A DNA stretch of 8,534 nt from Bacillota bacterium. GTDB taxonomy: Bacteria > Bacillota_C > Negativicutes > Sporomusales > Sporomusaceae. A program made the translations under genes and the position numbers. Each line of letters opens with the position of its first letter. The stretch's first letter is position 1. Positions 1 through 8,515 of the stretch are shown in pieces. The notes below the pieces were generated by a model. It saw only the letters and a program-made list of their open reading frames with translations, searched no databases and was not told where the DNA came from. The stretch is taken from positions 1 to 8,534 of the forward strand of contig JAEZQV010000477.1 of assembly GCA_023441125.1 (NCBI GenBank), written 5' to 3'.

Positions 1-1419
1 CTCTTGACCTTGCTGCAGAGGAGTTCTGTTGTCATCCGGGCCGTTAACCTCGCCGGCAGTCTGGCAACCAGCGCAACCTTACTGGTTTTAATCTATTCGG
101 TTACGCAGGAGAATGTTTTCCGCTCCACCTATTTTTATGTCGATCACTTAAGCGCCGTATTACTGTTTGTGGTCGCCCTGCTCACCTTTACGGCCACGCT
201 GTTTTCCTTATCCTATATGGAAAAAGAGGTAGCCGACGGGCATCTTACCCCGGCTATGCTGCCGCGCTATTACGCCCTCTTGAATCTCTTTACTTTTGCC
301 ATGATCAGTGTCATTGTTGTCGGCAATCTGGGCCTGATGTGGGTGGCGGTGGAAGGCACCACGCTGGCTTCGGCCCTCTTAGTCGCCTTTTCTTTTAACC
401 GGGATGCCCTGGAGGCGGCCTGGAAATATGTAATGATTTGCACGGTCGGCATTTGTCTGGCCCTCTTGGGAACCATGGTTATGTATTATGCGCAGGTCAA
501 TGCCGGTGTGACCGCTGTCCAGGCTCTGGACTGGGTAAGTTTGAAGGCGATGAGTGGCAAAATGGACCCGGCCATTATCAAGATTGCCTTTATCTTCATT
601 CTGATCGGCTATGGAACCAAAGCCGGGCTGGCGCCCATGCACACCTGGCTGCCTGATGCCCACAGCCAGGCGCCGTCGCCGGTCAGCGGTCTGTTGTCCG
701 GTGCGCTCTTAAGCTGCGCCCTGTATGCGCTGGTGCGTAATGTGATTATCGTCCAGGGGGCCATTGGCGCGGATTTCCCCCGCTATATGCTGCTGGCGCT
801 CGGGCTGCTGTCCATTGCCATCGCCGTTCCCTTTGTGCTTGTCCAGCATGATGTCAAGCGGCTCTTAGCTTACTCCAGCGTGGAGCATATGGGCATTATC
901 ACGCTGGGGCTGGGGGTGGGTACGCCACTGGCCGTCTATGCCGCCTTGCTGCATGTTGTCAATCATGCCGTTGTCAAATCGCTGCTGTTCTACCTGGCCG
1001 GTGTTGTTACCCAGGAGTTCCGGACCAAAAACATTAAACAAATCGTTGGTGTCGCCCGGGTCATGCCGCTGGTGGCCACCATGTTTATCATCGCCATTCT
1101 CGCAATTACCGGCACACCGCCATTCAATATTTTTATCAGCAAATTCTATATTGTTCTGGGACTCTTCACGAATCAGCAATGGTTGCTGGCCAGCATCACC
1201 CTACTGCTGTTAACCGGAATCTTTGCCGGGATGATGTATTATTGCCTGAAAATGAGTTTTGGCGCCGGGCCGGTCGAAGTAAAACCAGGCCGGTTGGCCT
1301 GGTCGGCAACAACGGCGATGGTTCTTTCGCTGGTGGTAATCGTGGCCGGCGGCTTATACCTGCCGCCAATGGTCAACCAGGTGCTGGTACAGGCGGCGGA
1401 AATTGTGTTGGGGGGTTAA
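1..1419 (+). CDS. hyfF: HyfF-like proton-pumping membrane subunit of a group 4 hydrogenase-like complex (probably 5' partial)
   Basis: Integral membrane subunit of the antiporter-like family (HyfF, HycC, NuoL/M/N), which is thought to move protons or sodium ions across the membrane coupled to electron transfer in the peripheral arm. The protein is almost entirely hydrophobic helices. Counting from the TTG at position 4, family hallmarks are visible: E117 in VAVEGTTLASA, K206 in GYGTKAGLAPMHTWLPDAHS, the LAYSSVEHMG stretch at 289-297, K325 in HAVVKSLLF and K380 in FISKF. All are charged residues inside membrane helices. Similarity to E. coli HyfF, recalled from memory, runs to the C-terminus, but about 20 N-terminal residues (the first helix) seem missing. 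The frame is open to position 1 and the TTG at 4 has no visible ribosome site, so the true start is probably outside the window. It lies 4 bp upstream of the large-subunit gene, in one operon. Confidence 0.88.
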   Translation, partial: LLTLLQRSSVVIRAVNLAGSLATSATLLVLIYSVTQENVFRSTYFYVDHLSAVLLFVVALLTFTATLFSLSYMEKEVADGHLTPAMLPRYYALLNLFTFAMISVIVVGNLGLMWVAVEGTTLASALLVAFSFNRDALEAAWKYVMICTVGICLALLGTMVMYYAQVNAGVTAVQALDWVSLKAMSGKMDPAIIKIAFIFILIGYGTKAGLAPMHTWLPDAHSQAPSPVSGLLSGALLSCALYALVRNVIIVQGAIGADFPRYMLLALGLLSIAIAVPFVLVQHDVKRLLAYSSVEHMGIITLGLGVGTPLAVYAALLHVVNHAVVKSLLFYLAGVVTQEFRTKNIKQIVGVARVMPLVATMFIIAILAITGTPPFNIFISKFYIVLGLFTNQQWLLASITLLLLTGIFAGMMYYCLKMSFGAGPVEVKPGRLAWSATTAMVLSLVVIVAGGLYLPPMVNQVLVQAAEIVLGG

Positions 1420-1427
1420 AGAGGTGG
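1410..1427 (+). promoter_or_regulatory. Ribosome-binding region deciding the GTG start of the large subunit
   Basis: The reading frame of the large-subunit gene can be opened from a TTG at 1403, inside the end of the preceding gene. That would add seven residues (MCWGVKE) unlike any family N-terminus. The GTG at 1424 is better placed: it follows the preceding TAA (1417-1419) by 4 bp, and a G-run at 1410-1415 sits 8 bases before it. A second purine-rich stretch, AAAGAGGTGG at 1418-1427, overlaps the GTG and has no in-frame ATG, GTG or TTG at normal spacing. The coupled position suggests re-initiation by ribosomes finishing hyfF. Confidence 0.45.
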
Positions 1428-2923
1428 TTGAATATATAAGCATACCGGCGATTTCATTACAAGCGGCCGTTTCTGCCGCTTATCAGGAGCAGCAGGATCT
1501 GGTGGCCATGTTTGCCAATGACGAACGCGAATTGGACGGACATTATGCCATTTATTGTGTTTTTGCCGCCGGTAAAGGCTTCAAAGTAGTCAGGGCCCTG
1601 CTGCCGGCCGCTGGTCCGTTGGAATTTCCTTCCCTGTCGCCCCAAATACCCGCCGCAGCCTGGTATGAACGGGAAATCCACGATTTGTTCGGCTTAACGC
1701 CTGTCGGCCACCCTGATCTCAGGCCGCTGGTGCTGCATGAAAACTGGCCGGACAATGTTTATCCGCTGCGCAAGGATTTTGATGTGCATACACCGGTGGC
1801 CACTGTTCATAAACAGTGGCACATGAATACCGTGACGGGCGAGGGCACCTTTGAAGTGCCGGTCGGGCCGATCCACGCCGGCATCATCGAACCGGGACAT
1901 TTCCGCTTTAGCCAGGCCGGAGAATCCATCCTCCGGCTGGATGCCAAGATGTTCTTTGTGCACCGGGGCATTGAAAAGGCGGTGGAGGGCCTGCCGCTGG
2001 CCAAAGCTTTTTATCAGGTGGAGCGTATTTCCGGCGTCTGCAACGTCGCCCATTCCCTGGCCTACTGCCAGGCTGTCGAGTCGCTGGCCGGCGCTCAGGT
2101 GCCAAACCGCGCCCAGTATCTCAGGGCGCTGGTAGCGGAACTGGAACGCCTGTACAACCACGTGGGGGATATCGGCAACCTGTGCGCCGGCATGGGTTTT
2201 GCCGTGGCCATTATGGCCGGAGCCCGGCTGAAAGAGGCAATTATGAGAATCAATGAGGCCCTGACCGGCAACCGTTTTCTGCGCGGTATGGTCGTGCCGG
2301 GCGGGGTGCGGCAGGATATCGACGACGAACTGAGCAGCGCCATTATCGAACTGTTAAATAGGCTGGAACCGGATTTTACCGAATTAATCGGCCTATTCCG
2401 CAATAACGACGAGTTCCTGAACCGGGTCGACACCACCGGTATTGTACCGCGCCAGGCTGCACTCGACCTGGGGGTAGTGGGGGTCGGCGCCCGGGCTTCC
2501 GGTATTGACGCGGATACGCGGCGGGATTATCCCTATGGGTGCTATGCTGAACTTGAGTTCGCCGTGCCGGTGTATACGACCGGTGATGTGGCCGCGCGGC
2601 TGTGGGTAAGAGTGGATGAAGTGTACCAGACCATCAAACTCATCCGCCAGATTCTGGCGCAAATGCCGGCCGGTCCGCTGCGGGTGGAGATTCCTGCCAT
2701 TGCACCGTACAGTTCAGGCTTTGGCTGGAGTGAATCCTCACAGGGAAATTGCCTGCACTGGCTTATGACCGGCAAAGACAATACCATTTACCGCCTGTTT
2801 GTGCGGGCGGCCGCATATCCTAACTGGCCGGCATTGACGGTAGCCGCTCCGGGCAATATTATTCCGGACTTTCCGTTGATTAACAAGAGCTACGAGTTAT
2901 CCTACGCCTGCCTCGACCGATAG
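1424..2923 (+). CDS. HyfG/HycE-like large subunit (NuoC-NuoD fusion) lacking two nickel-ligand cysteines
   Basis: Catalytic-type subunit of a group 4 [NiFe]-hydrogenase-like complex, 499 residues from the GTG start. Residues 1 to about 120 form a NuoC-like (30 kDa) domain with its signature WYEREIHDLFGL and GHPDLRPLVL (80-104). From about residue 145 (GPIHAGIIEPGHF) it is NuoD/HycE-like, with the RGIEK motif at 181-185. True hydrogenases hold Ni-Fe with RxCGxC near the N-terminal side and DPCxxC at the end. Here these read RISGVC (201-206) and ELSYAC (491-496): S203 and S493 replace the terminal cysteines, while C206 and C496, the bridging positions, remain. Asp and Pro of the last motif are also changed. 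The protein stops two residues after C496, so there is no cleavable C-terminal extension, as in other group 4 enzymes. This pattern fits Ehr complexes; whether it binds any metal is open. Confidence 0.9.
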   Translation: MVEYISIPAISLQAAVSAAYQEQQDLVAMFANDERELDGHYAIYCVFAAGKGFKVVRALLPAAGPLEFPSLSPQIPAAAWYEREIHDLFGLTPVGHPDLRPLVLHENWPDNVYPLRKDFDVHTPVATVHKQWHMNTVTGEGTFEVPVGPIHAGIIEPGHFRFSQAGESILRLDAKMFFVHRGIEKAVEGLPLAKAFYQVERISGVCNVAHSLAYCQAVESLAGAQVPNRAQYLRALVAELERLYNHVGDIGNLCAGMGFAVAIMAGARLKEAIMRINEALTGNRFLRGMVVPGGVRQDIDDELSSAIIELLNRLEPDFTELIGLFRNNDEFLNRVDTTGIVPRQAALDLGVVGVGARASGIDADTRRDYPYGCYAELEFAVPVYTTGDVAARLWVRVDEVYQTIKLIRQILAQMPAGPLRVEIPAIAPYSSGFGWSESSQGNCLHWLMTGKDNTIYRLFVRAAAYPNWPALTVAAPGNIIPDFPLINKSYELSYACLDR

Positions 2924-2934
2924 GAGGAAACGAC

Positions 2935-3666
2935 ATGTTAAATGTATTACGCAAAATAATCAGCACCGGCACGGTGACCGAGGATTGGGAAACCGCCTTG
3001 CCGCCCCGGCGTTCCCGCGGCGAGGTGGCTGTACAGTCGGCTCAGTGCAGCGGCTGTAAACAATGTGTGGCTGTTTGTCCGTCCCAGGCTATTCAGGTAG
3101 CCGGAACCACGGTAAGCATTGATCAGCGGGCCTGTGTTTTTTGCGGGCTCTGCGTTGATACCTGCGAGGCAGCCTGCTTCCAGCAAACCGGTAACTACAA
3201 ATTAGCTGTCCTGGACGGCTCCCTGGCTGAGGCAGCAGCTTCGGAGCTCAAGCGTAAAATCCGGGCGGTACTGGGCCGTTCCCTGCATGTCAGACATGTT
3301 GACATCGGCTCATGTAATGCCTGCGACTTTGAAATGACTCACCTGGGTAATCCCATCTATGATGTACAGCAGTACGGAGTGGATTTTGTGGCCTCGCCCC
3401 GCCATGCCGATTTGTTGATGGTAACCGGTGTGGTCACGCGTAACTCGACGCAGGCTTTGCAAATGACCTATGAAGCGACCCCGCACCCCAAGCTGGTTAT
3501 GGCGGTGGGGGCCTGTGCGGCCAGCGGCCAGGTTTTCGGCGATAGTTATGCCATCCGCGGGGGCGTGGATAAGATCGTACCTGTAGATATCTATGTTCCC
3601 GGTTGTCCGCCGCGGCCGCAGGCCCTGATTCACGCCCTGCTGCTGGCCTTAGACCGTCTAAAGTAA
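2935..3666 (+). CDS. Fused ferredoxin / NuoB-like small subunit (HyfH-HyfI fusion)
   Basis: Electron-transfer subunit, 243 residues. The N-terminal part (1 to about 90) starts MLNVLRKIISTGTVT, like HyfH/HycF, and carries two 4Fe-4S ferredoxin motifs: C38-C41-C44-C48 and C67-C70-C73-C77. The second part (about 117-243) is the NuoB/HyfI small subunit, with the proximal 4Fe-4S ligands C127 and C130 (SCNACD), C194 (GAC) and C224 (PGCPPRP), plus the family stretches SPRHADLLMVTG and DKIVPVDIYVPGCPP. In E. coli these two units are separate genes of about 180 and 250 residues, so each half here is shortened and joined by a charged helix-like linker near 98-113. An AGGAGG at 2922-2927 overlaps the stop of the large-subunit gene, 7 bases before this ATG. 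It would pass electrons between an outside donor and the large subunit. It is the last gene of the operon; the next gene has its own promoter. Confidence 0.9.
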   Translation: MLNVLRKIISTGTVTEDWETALPPRRSRGEVAVQSAQCSGCKQCVAVCPSQAIQVAGTTVSIDQRACVFCGLCVDTCEAACFQQTGNYKLAVLDGSLAEAAASELKRKIRAVLGRSLHVRHVDIGSCNACDFEMTHLGNPIYDVQQYGVDFVASPRHADLLMVTGVVTRNSTQALQMTYEATPHPKLVMAVGACAASGQVFGDSYAIRGGVDKIVPVDIYVPGCPPRPQALIHALLLALDRLK

Positions 3667-3743: not shown

Positions 3744-3784
3744 ACAGCAAGGCATCGGCAGTTTACCAGCCGATGCCTTGCTGT
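3744..3784 (+). terminator. Perfect 16-bp hairpin downstream of the Ehr-like operon
   Basis: The arms ACAGCAAGGCATCGGC (3744-3759) and its exact complement (3769-3784) are separated by a 9-base loop. The structure begins 77 bp after the small-subunit stop codon. No T-run follows on either strand, so it does not fit a simple intrinsic terminator. It could be a terminator working with a factor, a 3'-end mRNA stabiliser, or a protein-binding dyad. The hairpin itself is certain; its role as a terminator is inferred from position. Confidence 0.45.
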
Positions 3785-4014: not shown

Positions 4015-4743
4015 ATGCGAAACCGCGATAACCTAATTCCTGTCTACTACCGTTTGGCGGAAGACATAAAAAAGCAAATCGAATCCGGTGAGTTAAAAGA
4101 CGGCGACCTGATTCCGACCGAGGTGCAGCTTGGCGAGCTATACTCCATAAGCCGCATGACGGTGCGCCAAGGTATCGCCCTGCTGGTGGAGGCCGGTTTG
4201 GTCGAGACGGTCAAAGGCAAAGGCAGTTTTGTCACCCGGCCCCGTTTAAACCAGCTGGTGATTGACCTTAAACAGGTTGGCGCTCCCCGGGAGCAGATAC
4301 GCTATAAGCTCTTGGATGTTAACTTAATCCGCAATAACAGGGAATTGGCCAATGAGCTGGGCTTTACCGGTGAAACCAGTGTAATTGCCATAAAGCGCTT
4401 AATGCTGAAAGGGAATTTGCCGGTGGCAATAGAGGAAAAGTTTTTGCGCTATCAAAAAGGCAAACCCCTGTTGGAAACCCAGCTGGAATATGCCGATTTT
4501 CCTGAAGTAGTGGCCAAGCATCAGGAAAGCGTGCCGGTTCGCAATGATATGCTGATTTCCGTGGCCGCCTTATCGGCCGAGCAGGCCAAACTCCTCGGTA
4601 CGGAGGCAGCACTGCCGGCGCTTGTAATCAAACAGGTTATCTACTCCAAAGATGATAAATTGCTGGGCGTGGCAACTATGGTTTGCCACCAAGACCGGTA
4701 TGAACTCAAGGCAACCTCGTATCCAATACTAGGAAGGTTGTGA
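4015..4743 (+). CDS. GntR-family (HutC subfamily) transcriptional regulator with UTRA ligand domain
   Basis: Probable metabolite-responsive repressor, 242 residues, the usual length for HutC-type proteins. The N-terminal winged helix-turn-helix (about 8-73) shows the GntR pattern: YYRLAEDIKKQIESGEL, GDLIPTEVQLGELYSISRMTVRQGI split over helices 1-3, and the wing GLVETVKGKGSFV. Residues about 95-235 form the UTRA domain (chorismate-lyase-like fold), which binds a small effector; the family pattern appears in VIAIKRLMLKGNLPVAIEE and in the closing strands near 215-235. Start ATG with AAAGGAG 7 bases upstream. The next gene begins 4 bp after its stop, so regulator and corrinoid protein are almost certainly co-transcribed. 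The effector is unknown; by context it may be a methyl-donor substrate or a product of its use. Confidence 0.9.
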   Translation: MRNRDNLIPVYYRLAEDIKKQIESGELKDGDLIPTEVQLGELYSISRMTVRQGIALLVEAGLVETVKGKGSFVTRPRLNQLVIDLKQVGAPREQIRYKLLDVNLIRNNRELANELGFTGETSVIAIKRLMLKGNLPVAIEEKFLRYQKGKPLLETQLEYADFPEVVAKHQESVPVRNDMLISVAALSAEQAKLLGTEAALPALVIKQVIYSKDDKLLGVATMVCHQDRYELKATSYPILGRL

Positions 4744-4747
4744 TAAC

Positions 4748-5404
4748 ATGTTAAAATTGCAAAAAATGCTGGTAGGAGCCATGGCCAGGCTGGATGACAC
4801 GATGGTCTTGAATTTGTTCAAACAAGGTCTCCGAATGGGAATTAGTCCTTACGTTCTGCTGGAGGAAATACGAATAGGCACTGACCGGGTGGGCGAGCTG
4901 TACAGCAAAGGCGAGTACTTTTTATCTGACCTGATTATGGCGTCCGAGATCTTTAAAGATGTACTGGCGTTGGTGAATCAGGACCGGGACATCAGGACGA
5001 AATCGTTTTACCCAACCGTAATTTTTGGCACGGTAGAAGAGGACATCCATGACATCGGCAAAAACATCACAACAGGCATAATGCGGTATAATGGCTTTGA
5101 CATCTGTGACCTGGGGGTTAATGTCCCGGCACAAAAATTTATTGAGGCTGTCAAGCTGCATAATAGCCGGATTGTTTGCTTAACCGGCTTGATTACCGAA
5201 GCGTTCGATTCCATGAAAAATACTGTTTTGCTGTTGGAGGAGGCCGGGCTGCGGACACAGACTACCGTAATTATTGGCGGTCTGGTCAATGAGACTGTCA
5301 GACAGTATACCGGCGCCGATTATTGGGCCACTGACTGTACAAGGGTAGCAGAACTGTGCCGTTCCATTCTGGCAACAGACAACCGTATTGCTCAGTCATT
5401 ATAA
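4748..5404 (+). CDS. Methyltransferase-type corrinoid (cobalamin-binding) protein, MtaC/MtvC-like
   Basis: Carrier of the methyl group in corrinoid-dependent methyltransferase systems, cytoplasmic, 218 residues, typical length. Residues 1 to about 85 form the helical cap domain (B12-binding-2) with LYSKGEYFLSDLIMASEIF. The Rossmann-like B12 domain follows, with the base-off/His-on signature: D99-I-H101-D-I-G104, where H101 should be the lower cobalt ligand, then 41 residues to T146-G-L148 (usually SxL), then 28 residues to G177-G178. The end carries the familiar GADYWATD. Thr for Ser at 146 is a mild departure. The ribosome site AGGAAGG (4731-4737) lies in the end of the regulator gene. Partners are expected to be a substrate-specific methyltransferase (the UroD-like protein at 7409-8515 is a candidate), a tetrahydrofolate methyltransferase and a reductive activator; the last two are not in the window. 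Confidence 0.92.
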   Translation: MLKLQKMLVGAMARLDDTMVLNLFKQGLRMGISPYVLLEEIRIGTDRVGELYSKGEYFLSDLIMASEIFKDVLALVNQDRDIRTKSFYPTVIFGTVEEDIHDIGKNITTGIMRYNGFDICDLGVNVPAQKFIEAVKLHNSRIVCLTGLITEAFDSMKNTVLLLEEAGLRTQTTVIIGGLVNETVRQYTGADYWATDCTRVAELCRSILATDNRIAQSL

Positions 5405-5419
5405 AGGATGTGCTAATCA

Positions 5420-6130
5420 ATGGGGACGGCGATCGTAGCCTGCCACACTCTCCGGGACGAACTCAACCTGGTAATTAAAGAAACCGGTGTGGATTATCCG
5501 GTTATATATATTGAGTCTGAACTGCATAACACACCGGAGCTTTTGCATAAGAGAATTCAGGAGGAGATTAATTGCCTTGATAATGTGGCCGTTATCCTGC
5601 TGGCCTTCGGCTATTGCGGCAACAGTTTGCTGGGGATAAAATCCGCCAAGGCCAGGCTGGTCATCCCGCAAGCGGATGACTGTATTCCGCTCCTCTTAGG
5701 TTCCTGCGAGGCAAGAAGAACTATTTTAAAAGAAAAGGGAACCTATTTTCTCACCCAAGGCTGGCTGGATAACGAGAGCAATTTATTGCGTGAATATGAG
5801 CGGTGTATTGAACGTTACGGGCCGGAGCGGGCTCTAAAAATCATGAAGATCATCCGGGGGCATTATAAACGCTTTATGCTTATTGACACAGGCGCCTATG
5901 CTGTGGAAACCATACTGCCGCAAACACAGCGTTTTGCAGAAATGCTTACTATGGGCCACGAAGTGACGAAAGGCTCGCTTCGCCTGCTCTATAAACTATT
6001 ACAAGGACAGTGGGCGGAAGAATTCCTGGTATTGGAACCAGGCCAAGAGGTTACAATACAAGATATCTGCCGCAGCCCTATTCAAGCGGAAGTGATTCAG
6101 ATCTCGCCGGCAAAGTTGATTAGCTGCTGA
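5420..6130 (+). CDS. DUF1638 family protein, function unknown, in corrinoid operon
   Basis: 236-residue soluble protein of the DUF1638 type, recognised by the opening IVACHTLRDEL, the conserved LHNTPE (35-40), the hydrophobic stretch ending in LLAFGYCGNSLLG (60-72), and ADDCIPLLLGS (86-95). It has no signal peptide or membrane helix. It is rich in cysteine and histidine: C8, H9, H36, C66, C88 and C96 lie in the motif regions and could form a metal or cofactor site (inference). The family has no established function that I know. From memory, such genes often sit beside corrinoid proteins and methyltransferases in acetogens and methanogens, which this operon repeats: it starts 15 bp after the corrinoid gene, with AAAGGA upstream. 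A role in corrinoid handling or as a methyltransferase partner is a guess. The gene ends just before a stem-loop terminator. Confidence 0.8.
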   Translation: MGTAIVACHTLRDELNLVIKETGVDYPVIYIESELHNTPELLHKRIQEEINCLDNVAVILLAFGYCGNSLLGIKSAKARLVIPQADDCIPLLLGSCEARRTILKEKGTYFLTQGWLDNESNLLREYERCIERYGPERALKIMKIIRGHYKRFMLIDTGAYAVETILPQTQRFAEMLTMGHEVTKGSLRLLYKLLQGQWAEEFLVLEPGQEVTIQDICRSPIQAEVIQISPAKLISC

Positions 6131-6146
6131 GCTTTTTACTGTAAAT

Positions 6147-6175
6147 AAAGCCACCCGTTGCCTACGGGTGGCTTT
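6147..6175. terminator. Bidirectional stem-loop terminator between the DUF1638 and LysR genes
   Basis: Perfect 12-bp stem AAAGCCACCCGT (6147-6158) with its complement at 6164-6175 and a 5-base loop. The arms begin in AAA and end in TTT, giving short T-tracts on both strands. It lies between the + strand stop at 6130 and the - strand stop at 6188, so it can end both convergent transcripts. Confidence 0.8.
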
Positions 6176-6187
6176 GCCTTACTATAC

Positions 6188-7144
6188 CTATGCTTTAGAG
6201 CCGGCTGTCCGGGATAATACTTGCGGTTCCAGCTTTTCAGCCTGGTCGGGTCGCAGGTTGCTGGATTCTAGTACTTTAAGAAAAAGTGCCACCGCAGGGT
6301 TTTGGTGTTCTTTTTTCCAGGCAGCCATGATATTGCAGCACGCTTCCTCTCCCTGCATGCCGACTAAAGAAATGCCGGCAGGAACGTGGCGAGCCAGTGA
6401 GGGGTCCTTGGGCATGAAAGAAACGCCTGCCCCGGCTTCGACATACCAGTAAACACTCTCCATCCGGGTGGTTTTGCTGGCAATGGTAGGCGTAAAGTTC
6501 CTGCTGGCGCAAAAATTCATAAACCAGTTAAACCCGTCCGGGGTTTCCGTGTCGGACAGAACGATGAACGGATCAGTAGCCAAAGCTGCAATATCAAGGG
6601 AAGTAGCGCCGGCGTAAAGATGGTCGCCCGGCAGCAAAAAATACAGCGGTGTTCGCTGAATTAATTGCTGGGCAAACCGGCCTGGTTTTAGCTCCTTACC
6701 CATGATGATCGTAAAGCCCAAATCCACTTCTTCTGACTCAATCGCCTCATCGATCATCCTGAGTGTCAATACGCGGATATCGACACTGATTTGCGGATAA
6801 AGCGAACGAAAGCGTTTGAGCGTGTAGGGAAGAAACGCATTCTCAAACCCAAAACAGCCGATCCGCAGGCTGCCCCGGATGCCGCGCTGAGCCTGGCGGG
6901 TTTTTTCAATAATGTCGGCAATTCTGGCAATCAGGCCATTGCCTTCGCGCAATAAGGTCTTGCCGGCCGGTGTCAGTTCAAGAGACCTGTGATGACGAAT
7001 AAACAGCTCGACACCTAATTCTGATTCAAGATCGGCAATTTGTTTACTTAATGCCGACTGGCCAATATAAATCCGTTTCGCCGCCTCGGTGAAACTCAGA
7101 CATTGGGCCACTGTTATAAACGATTGCAAACTTCGAATATCCAT
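6188..7144 (-). CDS. LysR-type transcriptional regulator
   Basis: DNA-binding regulator, 318 residues, slightly longer than the usual 290-310. The N-terminal helix-turn-helix (about 1-60) is classic: MDIRSLQSFITVAQCLSFTE, then AAKRIYIGQSALSKQIADLE and LGVELFIRHHRSLELTPAG. A linker helix runs from about 60 to 88. The periplasmic-binding-like effector domain begins at RGSLRIGCFG (90-99) and includes the hinge region DLGFTIIMG. The last 20 or so residues (SNLRPDQAEK onward) are polar and probably a loose tail. The start is fixed by AGGAGG 7 bases upstream on the - strand. It is transcribed away from the UroD-like methyltransferase gene at 7409, the usual layout for a LysR protein controlling its divergent neighbour. 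The effector cannot be told from sequence. Confidence 0.92.
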   Translation of the reverse strand: MDIRSLQSFITVAQCLSFTEAAKRIYIGQSALSKQIADLESELGVELFIRHHRSLELTPAGKTLLREGNGLIARIADIIEKTRQAQRGIRGSLRIGCFGFENAFLPYTLKRFRSLYPQISVDIRVLTLRMIDEAIESEEVDLGFTIIMGKELKPGRFAQQLIQRTPLYFLLPGDHLYAGATSLDIAALATDPFIVLSDTETPDGFNWFMNFCASRNFTPTIASKTTRMESVYWYVEAGAGVSFMPKDPSLARHVPAGISLVGMQGEEACCNIMAAWKKEHQNPAVALFLKVLESSNLRPDQAEKLEPQVLSRTAGSKA

Positions 7145-7408
7145 ACCGTTTCCTCCTGCCTGGCCAGTTATCTCCTATCTATAATCATAATATAACCGGC
7201 GGCGAAAGGGTAGATGATGGCGAAAATTTGCTATGATTTTTGGGAATGGTTTTAAGAATTTTGAGAATTTGACGCTGGTTATGAGCTGGGGTAACATGGA
7301 AATATAAGTTACGTACTACAAAAGGGGGAAAGCGCGTGAAATAAAACCGGCGATCAGCAGCGATTCAATTTTAAATTTAAATAAAAATTTCTATGAAGGA
7401 GTGGTACT
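7145..7408. promoter_or_regulatory. Divergent regulatory region between the LysR and UroD-like genes
   Basis: 264 bp, AT-rich, must carry both start signals. On the LysR side there are several TATA-like -10 candidates at 7180-7194 on the - strand, but no clear -35. On the other side there is a good promoter at 7269-7297. Candidate regulator contacts are the inverted repeat AAAAT/ATTTT (7223-7227 and 7236-7240) and the tandem repeat GAATTTTGA-GAATTTGA (7256-7272) abutting the -35. If transcription starts near 7304, the methyltransferase mRNA has a leader of about 105 bases. Confidence 0.55.
7269..7297 (+). promoter_or_regulatory. Likely sigma-A promoter of the UroD-like methyltransferase gene
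   Basis: TTGACG (five of six consensus bases) at 7269-7274, a 17-bp spacer and TAACAT (four of six) at 7292-7297. The weak -10 would suit a promoter that needs an activator, as expected for LysR control. Confidence 0.45.
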
Positions 7409-8515
7409 ATGAAGACAACACAGGAACTATTAGCGGAGCGCAAGAACCGGGTTCATAAAGCAGTTACCCTGGAAAAAACGGACAGAACACCGGTAATATT
7501 AATGGCTGATGCTTTTTGCGCCAATCAGATGGGAGTAAAATTGTCCGAGTTTTGCTCAAGTCTGGCCGTGCAAAACCAAACGATGTTAAACTCGGCAAAG
7601 GCCTTCGGCGATATTGACGGCATGAATGCGCCCTATGCGGCAGGACCGCTGTTCCCGCTGATTTTTATGACCCATGTCAAACTTCCCGGCAAGGAGCTGC
7701 CGGATAATTCCCTGTGGCAGCTTGACGAAAGAGAAGTCATGACGGCGGAAGACTATGATACCATACTTAATAAGGGCTGGGGGCCGTTTATGCAGGATTA
7801 TCTGGTCAACCGGCTGCATTATCCGCTCAGCCAGACCCTGGAAGAACTGGCGAAAACGCCGCAATTTGTGCAGAATTTCGAAGATGCCGGCTATATGATT
7901 TACTCGCCCATTATCGCCACTGCCGTACCGGAACTGCTCGGCGGCGGCCGTTCCATGCCGAAATTCATGCGGGACTTGTATAAAATTCCCGACAAGGTTG
8001 AGGCCGTGCTGGACATTATTCAGCAAGAGTGCCTGGAAATTCTGCGGCAGCAAATCCGGGCGACGAAAGCGTCCATTGTCTTTATGTCGCCGGCCCGTGG
8101 CGCCAGTGAGTTTTTCTCGCCGAAACTCTGGCAGCGCTTTGTCTGGAAATATCTCAAAGAAACAGTGGATGTAATCCTGGAGGAAGGTGTATTCGCCGAT
8201 ATTCATATTGACTCCAACTGGGAACGCGACCTGGAATTTTTCCGGACACTGCCGAAAGGAAAGTGTATTTTTGAAACCGACAGCGCCACCGATATTTACA
8301 AAGTGAAAGAGGTTCTTGGCGACATGATGTGCATCAAGGGCGATGTACCGGCAGCTAAGCTGGCATTGGGCACCCCAGAGGAGGTCTACAACTATTCGGC
8401 CAGACTGGTGAAAGACATGGGACCGGGCTTCATTCTCTCTTCCGGCTGCTCCATACCGCCGAACGCCAAGATTGAAAATGTCAAAGCCATGATTGCGGCC
8501 GCCACCGGCCAATAG
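7409..8515 (+). CDS. Uroporphyrinogen decarboxylase (UroD) family corrinoid methyltransferase, MtaA/MtvB-like
   Basis: 368-residue soluble TIM-barrel protein of the UroD superfamily branch that moves methyl groups to or from corrinoid proteins. Family marks: RVHKAVTLEKTDRTPV near the start (14-28), IHIDSNWERD (265-274), GKCIFETDSATDIYKVKEVLG (284-304, in parts), CIKGDVPAAKLALGTPEEV (308-326) and the closing SSGCSIPPNAKIENVKAM. In MtaA/MtbA zinc is held by H-x-C and a distal cysteine. Here the aligned residues are H266-x-D268 and C347, so one ligand is Asp. It is unlikely to be a heme-pathway decarboxylase, given the closing cysteine motif and the corrinoid-gene context. Ribosome site GAAGGAG (7395-7401), 7 bases before ATG. 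The substrate is not evident: methoxyaromatics, methanol, methylamines or coenzyme-like acceptors all remain possible. It is probably controlled by the divergent LysR gene and works with the corrinoid protein encoded 2 kb upstream. Confidence 0.88.
   Translation: MKTTQELLAERKNRVHKAVTLEKTDRTPVILMADAFCANQMGVKLSEFCSSLAVQNQTMLNSAKAFGDIDGMNAPYAAGPLFPLIFMTHVKLPGKELPDNSLWQLDEREVMTAEDYDTILNKGWGPFMQDYLVNRLHYPLSQTLEELAKTPQFVQNFEDAGYMIYSPIIATAVPELLGGGRSMPKFMRDLYKIPDKVEAVLDIIQQECLEILRQQIRATKASIVFMSPARGASEFFSPKLWQRFVWKYLKETVDVILEEGVFADIHIDSNWERDLEFFRTLPKGKCIFETDSATDIYKVKEVLGDMMCIKGDVPAAKLALGTPEEVYNYSARLVKDMGPGFILSSGCSIPPNAKIENVKAMIAAATGQ

What the first reader, a model, noticed from the sequence alone, without database searches (positions are those of the whole stretch)
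2030..2911. Hydrogenase-like large subunit with both terminal Ni-ligand cysteines replaced by serine but both bridging cysteines kept
Seen: RISGVC (codon TCC at 2030-2032) and ELSYAC (codon TCC at 2900-2902), where [NiFe] enzymes have RxCGxC and DPCxxC. Both changes hit the first cysteine of each pair, and both Ser codons (TCC) are one base from TGC. Known: in complex I NuoD all four cysteines are gone, and Ehr complexes lack some or all of them. Inference: the symmetric S-x-x-C/S-x-x-C pattern is not random decay. It may define a site with a different metal, a single-iron centre, or a quinone-like or other substrate pocket, while the antiporter and Fe-S subunits stay intact.
Basis: partly seen in the sequence, partly recalled or inferred. 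Interest (0 to 1): 0.75.

Follow-up and report, generated by a model that had tools for sequence, protein, structure and literature searches.

The report
Hydrogenase-like pump with retired nickel site
This bacterial gene makes the core of an ion-pumping enzyme complex that descends from a nickel-iron hydrogenase but, together with a group of close relatives, has lost the parts that hold the nickel, so it very probably does different chemistry that remains to be measured.

Summary
In detail: RISGVC (Ser TCC 2030-2032) and ELSYAC (Ser TCC 2900-2902) stand where hydrogenases have CxxC. It is not a local mutation. Of 120 listed homologues, 27 (one identical to the window's protein) have Ser at both sites, 93 have all four Cys, none is mixed. 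With active-site columns masked, the Ser proteins form one clade nested inside 4-Cys proteins. The clade also lost the canopy Arg (Gln440) and a second-shell hydroxyl (Ala464) in 14 of 14 loci against 0 of 28 4-Cys loci, and gained a His beside the small subunit's proximal Fe-S cluster (14 of 14 against 0 of 28). Coupling residues, proximal-cluster Cys and the membrane arm are kept, under purifying selection. In 5 of 13 Ser relatives, but 0 of 35 other loci, an [FeFe] hydrogenase lies in the same gene run, three times with formate dehydrogenase. Best reading: a nickel-free member of the Ehr (energy-converting hydrogenase-related) kind whose emptied pocket serves another electron acceptor, perhaps a quinone; the acceptor is not shown and one genome speaks against quinone. 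New variant of a known kind.

The parts
1..1419 (+). HyfF/NuoN-like antiporter subunit (5' end cut by the window)
   Evidence: Proton_antipo_M 1.8e-54; best NCBIfam hits are hydrogenase 4 subunit F models, below their cut-offs
1424..2923 (+). HyfG/HycE-like large subunit, NuoC and NuoD parts fused, 499 aa (ORF also open from TTG 1403)
   Evidence: Complex1_30kDa, Complex1_49kDa, NiFeSe_Hases; HycE 7z0s_E 3.7e-100; Foldseek top hit 7z0s_E, TM 0.89/0.84
2030..2032 (+). Ser203 in place of terminal Ni-ligand Cys (Mbh Cys68)
   Evidence: Ser 27/27 in the Ser rows, Cys 93/93 in the others
2039..2041 (+). Cys206, retained bridging Cys (Mbh Cys71); Ala in one sub-lineage
   Evidence: 25 of 27
2741..2743 (+). 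Gln440 in place of canopy/catalytic Arg (Mbh Arg320, HycE Arg478)
   Evidence: Q 27/27, R 93/93; Q 14/14, R 28/28
2813..2815 (+). Ala464 in place of Ser (Mbh Thr345), second shell of the metal
   Evidence: A 27/27, S 93/93; A 14/14, S 28/28
2900..2902 (+). Ser493 in place of terminal Ni-ligand Cys (Mbh Cys374)
2909..2911 (+). Cys496, retained bridging Cys (Mbh Cys377)
   Evidence: 27 of 27
1889..1891 (+). Glu156, proton-shuttle Glu of the beta1-beta2 loop (Mbh Glu21), kept
2912..2923 (+). C-terminus LDR-stop: no residue follows the DR where HycE-like relatives carry a 32-33-residue tail
   Evidence: 0 of 120 listed rows with a tail; 7 HycE-like loci with tail
2935..3666 (+). HyfHI: 2x[4Fe-4S] ferredoxin domain fused to NuoB/HyfI-like small subunit; proximal-cluster Cys kept
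   Evidence: Fer4_10 and Oxidored_q6; MbhJ 6cfw_J 1.3e-43
3340..3342 (+). His136 of HyfHI, in the loci examined found only with Ser-type HyfG; aligns with the His of complex I NuoB 'EMMH'
   Evidence: alignment; 14/14 Ser, 0/28 4-Cys, 0/7 SESG; 25 of 120 listed HyfHI homologues

Best explanation
HyfG (1424-2923) is the large subunit of a nickel-free energy-converting-hydrogenase-related (Ehr-type) complex, HyfBCEFG-HyfHI, that evolved from a 4-Cys hydrogenase-type ancestor. SHOWN by sequence: both first-Cys (terminal Ni) positions, the canopy Arg and a second-shell Ser are replaced together in one clade, with a matched His in the partner small subunit; the proximal-cluster Cys, the loop Glu and C-terminal Asp used for coupling in Mbh, and the antiporter arm are kept. 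INFERRED: it cannot turn over H2 at this site. Electrons enter or leave at the ferredoxin domain of HyfHI (from ferredoxin, or from FdhF/HycB/[FeFe] hydrogenase partners where the gene run has them), run to the proximal [4Fe-4S] cluster and there reduce, or are supplied by, a small carrier bound in the emptied pocket. I think the carrier is most likely menaquinone or a similar hydrophobic two-electron carrier. Turnover drives ion pumping by the membrane arm, or pmf drives the reverse to feed CO2 or proton reduction.
For: Ser/Ser in 27 of 120 listed rows (one identical to the window), Cys/Cys in 93 of 120, no mixed rows. One clade, SH-aLRT 99, nested in 4-Cys rows, trait columns masked. Across 49 loci Ser203, Gln440, Ala464 and Ser493 are 14/14 in Ser loci (window included) and 0/28 in 4-Cys loci. 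5 of the 7 columns that separate the groups fall in the 20 mapped Mbh first/second-shell positions (post hoc hypergeometric 1.2e-6). The pocket is still constrained: 15 of 20 shell positions invariant in the Ser rows against 184 of 499 overall (4-Cys rows: 16 of 20 against 126 of 499); dN/dS 0.05-0.09 in 6 Ser pairs. Glu156 and Asp498 kept in 49 of 49 loci. Small-subunit His136, aligned with the His of complex I 'EMMH', 14/14 against 0/35. Eight of 13 Ser relatives have no FeFe/FDH gene in the held flanks, so some acceptor in the pocket or another soluble partner is needed. Menaquinone marker (MqnC or MenD) above cut-off in 10 of 12 Ser genomes. Emptied pockets of this superfamily reduce hydrophobic substrates in complex I and MBS (passages).
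Against: No acceptor is shown. Complex I quinone residues His38 and Tyr87 of Nqo4 align with Ile155 and Gly204 here (alignment; residues named); in space the loop Glu, kept here, takes the place of His38 as in hydrogenases. The canopy position is Gln, and non-protonatable changes there impair complex I (passages of PMC9474812). Ser genome G1040 has no MqnC or MenD hit over cut-off and no MqnA-family hit, although its gene run is the complete one; the partial MAG G001 likewise. Menaquinone markers are just as common in close 4-Cys genomes: 13 of 16 over cut-off, 14 counting a split MqnC in G1036. Completeness of these genomes is not told. The AlphaFold model does not resolve the pocket (residues 134-180 and 469-499 under pLDDT 50).
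Confidence: 0.45

Rival explanations
1. Metal-swap formate hydrogenlyase: H2 chemistry has moved from the internal [NiFe] site to an [FeFe] hydrogenase (with FdhF and HycB) docked on the Hyf membrane module; the HyfG pocket is a redox-silent structural transducer.
For: [FeFe] hydrogenase in the same gene run in 5 of 13 Ser relatives (L001, L003, L004, L077, L117) against 0 of 35 other loci (Fisher 7.5e-4, rows not independent). FocA in 4 of these 5, FdhF in 3; TGA at the selenocysteine position of FdhF in L003, L117 and the first FdhF of L001. H-cluster motifs intact in L001, L003, L117. G1040 has the full set and no quinone marker.
Against: 8 of 13 Ser relatives have no FeFe, FocA or FdhF gene in the held flanks (some flanks short). 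KB1 HydA lacks the first Cys of TSCCP. Pocket residues remain more invariant than the rest, odd for a silent site. The window's own upstream side is cut, so its partner genes are unseen.
Confidence: 0.25
2. A different metal centre, for example one iron, is held by Cys206, Cys496 and perhaps Ser or the small-subunit His136.
For: Cys496 27/27 and Cys206 25/27 kept; His136 co-segregates.
Against: Cys206 is Ala in P0023, P0024 and L003 while the rest of the site is kept. Arg and Ser shell residues lost.
Confidence: 0.12
3. Sulfur chemistry: polysulfide or disulfide reduction at the proximal cluster as in MBS, or a redox-active Cys206-Cys496 disulfide as the two-electron coupling element.
For: MBS also keeps two of the four Cys and reduces sulfane sulfur (passages of PMC7684303). 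Many Ser-type small subunits have a Cys two residues after His136: 13 of 14 loci, 15 of 25 His-bearing listed rows.
Against: The MBS site has a shortened motif leaving a 3-Cys cluster and lacks the loop Glu; here all four cluster Cys and CxxC spacing are kept, and Glu156 is kept. Cys206 is lost in one sub-lineage; the extra Cys is Gly in the window. MBS C85A/C385A stays active.
Confidence: 0.12
4. Still a [NiFe] hydrogenase, with serine oxygen as terminal ligand.
For: Four-Cys relatives are close (59-68% identity in the listing).
Against: Arg to Gln and Ser464 to Ala in all Ser rows and loci examined on top of both Cys to Ser. I recall no biochemical precedent.
Confidence: 0.04
5. Local mutation, pseudogene or sequencing error.
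For: None found.
Against: 26 other listed database clusters share the state; open frame, dN/dS 0.05-0.09 in the pairs computed.
Confidence: 0.01

Closest known systems
Four-Cys relatives (named 'Ni,Fe-hydrogenase III large subunit' or 'NADH-quinone oxidoreductase subunit C' by sources, e.g. Sporomusa carbonis P0044); probably the kind called EhrL with four Cys in D. ruminis (inference)
   Same: Same six-gene order HyfBCEFG-HyfHI, 59-68% identity in HyfG in the listing, no C-terminal tail
   Different: All four Cys, Arg440, Ser464, no His136; no FeFe hydrogenase in the held flanks of 28 of 28 loci
Ehr complexes (energy-converting hydrogenase-related; Coppi 2005 and Marreiros 2013 cited by others, neither read; described in passages of PMC3569383, PMC6349859, PMC10284858, PMC4378227)
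   Same: Hyf/Nuo-like membrane complex with lost Ni ligands, held not to be a real hydrogenase; FDH partner hypothesised in PMC6349859
   Different: Here exactly the two terminal ligands are replaced by Ser with bridging Cys mostly kept; origin inside 4-Cys proteins; FeFe hydrogenase in some gene runs. Whether published Ehr sets already hold such a subgroup was not checked
'SESG' proteins seen here (L061-L066, L068, L069; ISGDE / NLSYAG)
   Same: Ser at the same two first-Cys positions
   Different: Bridging Cys also lost (Glu, Gly), Arg440 and Ser464 kept in 7 of 7, separate deep clade; one joint clade rejected, AU p 0.0018
E. coli formate hydrogenlyase (HycE 7z0s_E)
   Same: Best solved relative by sequence and fold; FdhF/HycB/FocA neighbours in some relatives
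   Different: HycE has VCGIC/DPCYSC and the Arg; HycE-like loci have a 32-33-residue tail
MBS (MbsL, 6u8y)
   Same: Two of four Cys kept, ion-pumping arm, no NiFe
   Different: 3-Cys proximal cluster and no loop Glu in MBS; MBS may keep the opposite Cys of the second pair (C385 is 6 residues from the end of the 391-residue chain, as Cys374 is in 380-residue MbhL; inference from lengths, not aligned)
Complex I Nqo4/NuoD and NuoB
   Same: Fold, EMxH His in the NuoB-like subunit
   Different: No tandem Cys for N2, no His38/Tyr87 equivalents in the alignment
HDCR / group A4 [FeFe] FDH complexes (PMC12905484, passages)
   Same: FdhF, HycB, HydA set as in L001, L003, L117
   Different: The C. beijerinckii complex is soluble; no Hyf-type arm is described in the passages seen

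Membership tests
Catalytic group 4 [NiFe] hydrogenase | Four Cys ligands (L1 CxxC, L2 CxxC) | tested here: not met
   S203, C206, S493, C496
Catalytic group 4 [NiFe] hydrogenase | Canopy Arg next to the metal | tested here: not met
   Gln440 in 27/27 and 14/14
Catalytic group 4 [NiFe] hydrogenase | C-terminal maturation peptide | tested here: inconclusive
   Absent, but absent in the 93 listed 4-Cys relatives too, so it does not discriminate
Catalytic group 4 [NiFe] hydrogenase | H2 turnover and bound Ni | not testable with these tools
   needs protein
Ehr complex | Hyf/Nuo-like membrane and peripheral subunit set | tested here: met
   HyfBCEFG-HyfHI in 11 of 11 Ser loci with at least 9 kb upstream held; HyfF-HyfG-HyfHI in the window; L001 is cut upstream and L154 shows no upstream hyf genes in 4.4 kb
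Ehr complex | Loss of some or all NiFe-binding Cys | tested here: met
Ehr complex | Placement in the published Ehr tree (Marreiros 2013) | not tested
   paper not read; reference sequences not fetched
Formate hydrogenlyase | FdhF/HycB genes with the complex | tested here: inconclusive
   FdhF in 3 of 13 Ser relatives (L001, L003, L117); window upstream cut
MBS sulfane reductase | Proximal cluster with only three Cys, shortened motif | tested here: not met
   GSCNxC, GxC, PGC all kept in 49 of 49 loci
MBS sulfane reductase | Loss of the loop Glu (Mbh Glu21) | tested here: not met
   Glu156 kept
Complex I quinone site | Tandem Cys for cluster N2 | tested here: not met
   CNAC spacing
Complex I quinone site | His38 and Tyr87 (Nqo4) | tested here: not met
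   Ile155, Gly204 (alignment)
Complex I quinone site | EMxH His in NuoB (a feature I noticed, not a published definition) | tested here: met
   His136

The most novel reading that the evidence does not exclude
A hydrogenase-metal swap inside one membrane complex: a formate-hydrogenlyase-type ion pump retired its own [NiFe] site by a fixed set of pocket changes (two Cys to Ser, Arg to Gln, Ser to Ala, plus a new small-subunit His) and took on an external [FeFe] hydrogenase and formate dehydrogenase as redox heads, while the emptied pocket became a new acceptor or coupling site; some lineages run the pump without an [FeFe] neighbour. It would be an independent and recent replay of the step from hydrogenase to respiratory complex.
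Probability: 0.3. Interest if true: 0.82.

Novelty: new variant of a known kind. Interest (0 to 1): 0.6.

Why it matters
The step from H2-evolving hydrogenase to quinone-reducing complex I is usually studied across very distant proteins. Here 4-Cys and Ser/Ser forms are about 60-68% identical, share gene order, and coexist in single genomes (G004, G001), so the handful of changes that retire the metal site can be tested directly by swapping residues. It also warns annotators: some of these genes are labelled 'Ni,Fe-hydrogenase III large subunit' or 'NADH-quinone oxidoreductase' and could be miscounted as hydrogenases.

Tried and rejected
Rejected: sequencing error or decay. Rejected: one shared origin of Ser with the SESG proteins. 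Rejected: the DP to EL change as part of the anomaly (listed 4-Cys rows share it). Rejected: an FeFe hydrogenase in L150, a 23-24% identity hit about 7 kb past HyfHI, beyond spore-germination genes. Weakened: menaquinone genes as a correlate of the Ser state. Position 462 separates the groups among the 120 listed rows but not in all loci (3 of 14 Ser loci have Ser), and 264 and 355 do not separate Ser loci from all 28 4-Cys loci. One order search (10 genomes) gave no match above 51% identity. The AlphaFold model (35-row alignment) confirms the fold but not the pocket. Of the papers opened I saw only 'find' passages. None of these listings or passages describes the SxxC/SxxC clade or the FeFe + Hyf gene run; the library lacks most subscription papers, so this is not proof of absence.

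Full report
What is there. The window holds the 3' part of a Hyf-type operon: an antiporter-like HyfF (1-1419), a fused NuoC-NuoD type large subunit HyfG (1424-2923) and a fused ferredoxin plus NuoB-type small subunit HyfHI (2935-3666). The closest solved protein is HycE of E. coli formate hydrogenlyase by sequence (3.7e-100) and by fold (TM 0.89/0.84). Through the alignment to MbhL they replace Cys68 and Cys374, the first Cys of each pair; Cys71 and Cys377 equivalents (206, 496) are kept.

Is it conserved? Of 7995 matching proteins (7998 candidates scored) the search listed the best 120. Ser at both positions in 27, including P0001, which is identical to the window's protein; Cys at both in 93; none mixed; two of the 27 also have Ala for the first bridging Cys. 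Among the wider loci one remote protein (L048, 49%) has lost only one of the four, reading ELFYSC. Ser rows in the listing include Sporomusa, Anaerospora, Desulfotomaculum, Desulfosporosinus and Solidesulfovibrio. A 90-row tree built with 14 active-site columns masked puts all 28 Ser rows, the window included, in one clade (SH-aLRT 99) nested inside 4-Cys rows (sister link 97) (quick search, no bootstrap, some long branches elsewhere). A second family, SESG (ISGDE/NLSYAG), has Ser at the same two positions but lost the bridging Cys; a joint clade is rejected (AU p 0.0018). So Ser in place of the first Cys arose at least twice under this tree. Selection is purifying: dN/dS 0.05-0.09 in 6 Ser pairs, 0.05-0.10 in 3 four-Cys pairs; three further Ser pairs were saturated at synonymous sites.

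What else changed. With thresholds of 85% only seven of 499 columns separate the two groups among the listed rows: 203, 264, 355, 440, 462, 464, 493. Five of them fall among 20 positions mapped from the first and second shell of the Mbh metal site (list from a methods passage of PMC11228991; mapping and post hoc p 1.2e-6). In 49 loci with neighbours, 203, 440, 464 and 493 separate 14 Ser loci from 28 four-Cys loci without exception; 264, 355 and 462 do not hold everywhere. Position 440 is the canopy Arg (HycE Arg478; PMC9474812 passages), Gln here; 464 is Ser in 4-Cys loci and Thr345 in Mbh, Ala here. That this hydroxyl helps hold a cyanide ligand is my recall from soluble hydrogenases. Kept in all 49 loci: Glu156 (Mbh Glu21), His159 and Asp498. 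The 20 shell positions are more invariant in the Ser rows (15 of 20) than the protein at large (184 of 499), much as in the 4-Cys rows (16 of 20 against 126 of 499), so the pocket is still under constraint.

The small subunit. The proximal-cluster Cys are kept in 49 of 49 loci, with hydrogenase spacing. Right after them the Ser loci carry His136 (14 of 14), which none of 28 four-Cys or 7 SESG loci has. Among 120 listed HyfHI homologues 25 have it, including the 21 closest; their HyfG partners were not looked up. In the alignment to a complex I NuoB homologue it falls on the His of EMMH. A Cys two residues on is frequent but not general (13 of 14 loci; 15 of 25; Gly in the window).

Neighbourhood. 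The window's upstream side is cut, and the 4.9 kb downstream hold no FDH or hydrogenase gene. In relatives with flanks, 5 of 13 Ser loci have an [FeFe] hydrogenase in the same gene run: L003 and L117 (FocA-HycB-HydA-HycB-HyfBCEFG-HyfHI, then FdhD and, with HycB, FdhF), L004 and L077 (FocA-HydA-HyfBCEFG-HyfHI) and L001 (HyfG-HyfHI-FdhF-FdhF-HycB-HydA-HycB). One FdhF each in L117, L003 and L001 has TGA where selenocysteine is expected. None of 28 four-Cys and 7 SESG loci has an FeFe hydrogenase in the held flanks. The other 8 Ser loci, from one order that includes a Desulfosporosinus MAG, have none; five of these have a histidine kinase and a sigma-54 regulator upstream, as L004 does. Their flanks vary (1.7-9.6 kb on a side), and L154 shows no upstream hyf genes. 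Sigma-54-like sites lie 0.1-0.2 kb before focA in L004, L077 and L117, and apparently before hyfB in L151 (pattern recalled, no chance control, and further matches elsewhere in the same loci). HydA motifs are intact in L001, L003, L117; S. termitida (L077) has TPC for MPC, and KB1 (L004) has TSFCP for TSCCP and VPC for MPC.

Mechanism. The Ni ligands and the canopy Arg are gone in step, while the electron wire, the coupling loop and the pump remain. The simplest reading is that the complex still pumps but no longer with H2 at this site. In complex I and MBS an emptied site of this kind takes a hydrophobic substrate (PMC7684303 passages). His136 and the loci without FeFe or FDH genes favour such an acceptor. 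Against a plain complex I copy stand the missing His38/Tyr87 equivalents and the Gln at the canopy. Menaquinone markers (MqnC or MenD over cut-off) occur in 10 of 12 Ser genomes, 13 of 16 close 4-Cys genomes (14 with a split gene) and 3 of 8 SESG genomes, so they do not discriminate, and G1040, with the fullest gene run, has none of MqnC, MenD or the MqnA family PF02621 (the last on 10 genomes, found in 7). That genome fits the rival in which an [FeFe] hydrogenase supplies the H2 chemistry. I therefore hold the nickel-free conclusion at about 0.93 and the whole statement with a quinone-like acceptor at about 0.45.

What is known. Ehr complexes with absent Ni ligands are described (PMC3569383, PMC6349859, PMC10284858, PMC4378227; passages only). 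PMC3569383 notes an EhrL with all four Cys in D. ruminis, and PMC6349859 proposes an FDH-Ehr complex in genomes where no full quinone pathway was identified. So the kind is known. I found no description of this clade, of its exact half-dismantled site or of its FeFe neighbourhood in ten searches (listed in Tried and rejected). Hence: new variant of a known kind.

Noticed in passing
L061-L066, L068, L069 (HyfG-like, 44-47% identity to the window): A second nickel-free family, motif ISGDE / NLSYAG: all four Cys gone, Ser again at both first positions, canopy Arg kept, same gene order in the 7 loci with flanks; 8 rows in the tree, function unknown.
   Followed up: partly
L004 3481-4866 (Sporomusa sp. 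KB1 HydA): [FeFe] hydrogenase in the Ser gene run has TSFCPAW for TSCCPxW and VPC for MPC, so it may be impaired or altered itself; the S. termitida copy (L077) has TPC for MPC.
   Followed up: partly
window 4015-8515: GntR regulator, corrinoid protein, DUF1638 protein, LysR regulator and a MtaA/UroD-like methyltransferase: a corrinoid methyltransfer cluster next to, but apparently separate from, the Hyf operon.
   Followed up: no
window 3744-3784: Inverted repeat with 16-base arms (3744-3759 and 3769-3784, read by eye) after HyfHI, perhaps marking the operon's end; not tested.
   Followed up: no
L150 11605-12063: Small TIR-domain protein directly downstream of HyfHI; ORFs of similar size and place in L147, L149 and L152 were not tested.
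   Followed up: no
L001 2243-4171: First FdhF gene has a TGA at the selenocysteine site and then further frame breaks (MAG; gene decay or assembly error), followed by a Cys paralogue with an open frame.
   Followed up: partly
HyfB position 619 (L004 numbering): Arg in 15 of 15 close 4-Cys loci, Val in 11 of 11 Ser loci; may belong to the same functional shift.
   Followed up: no
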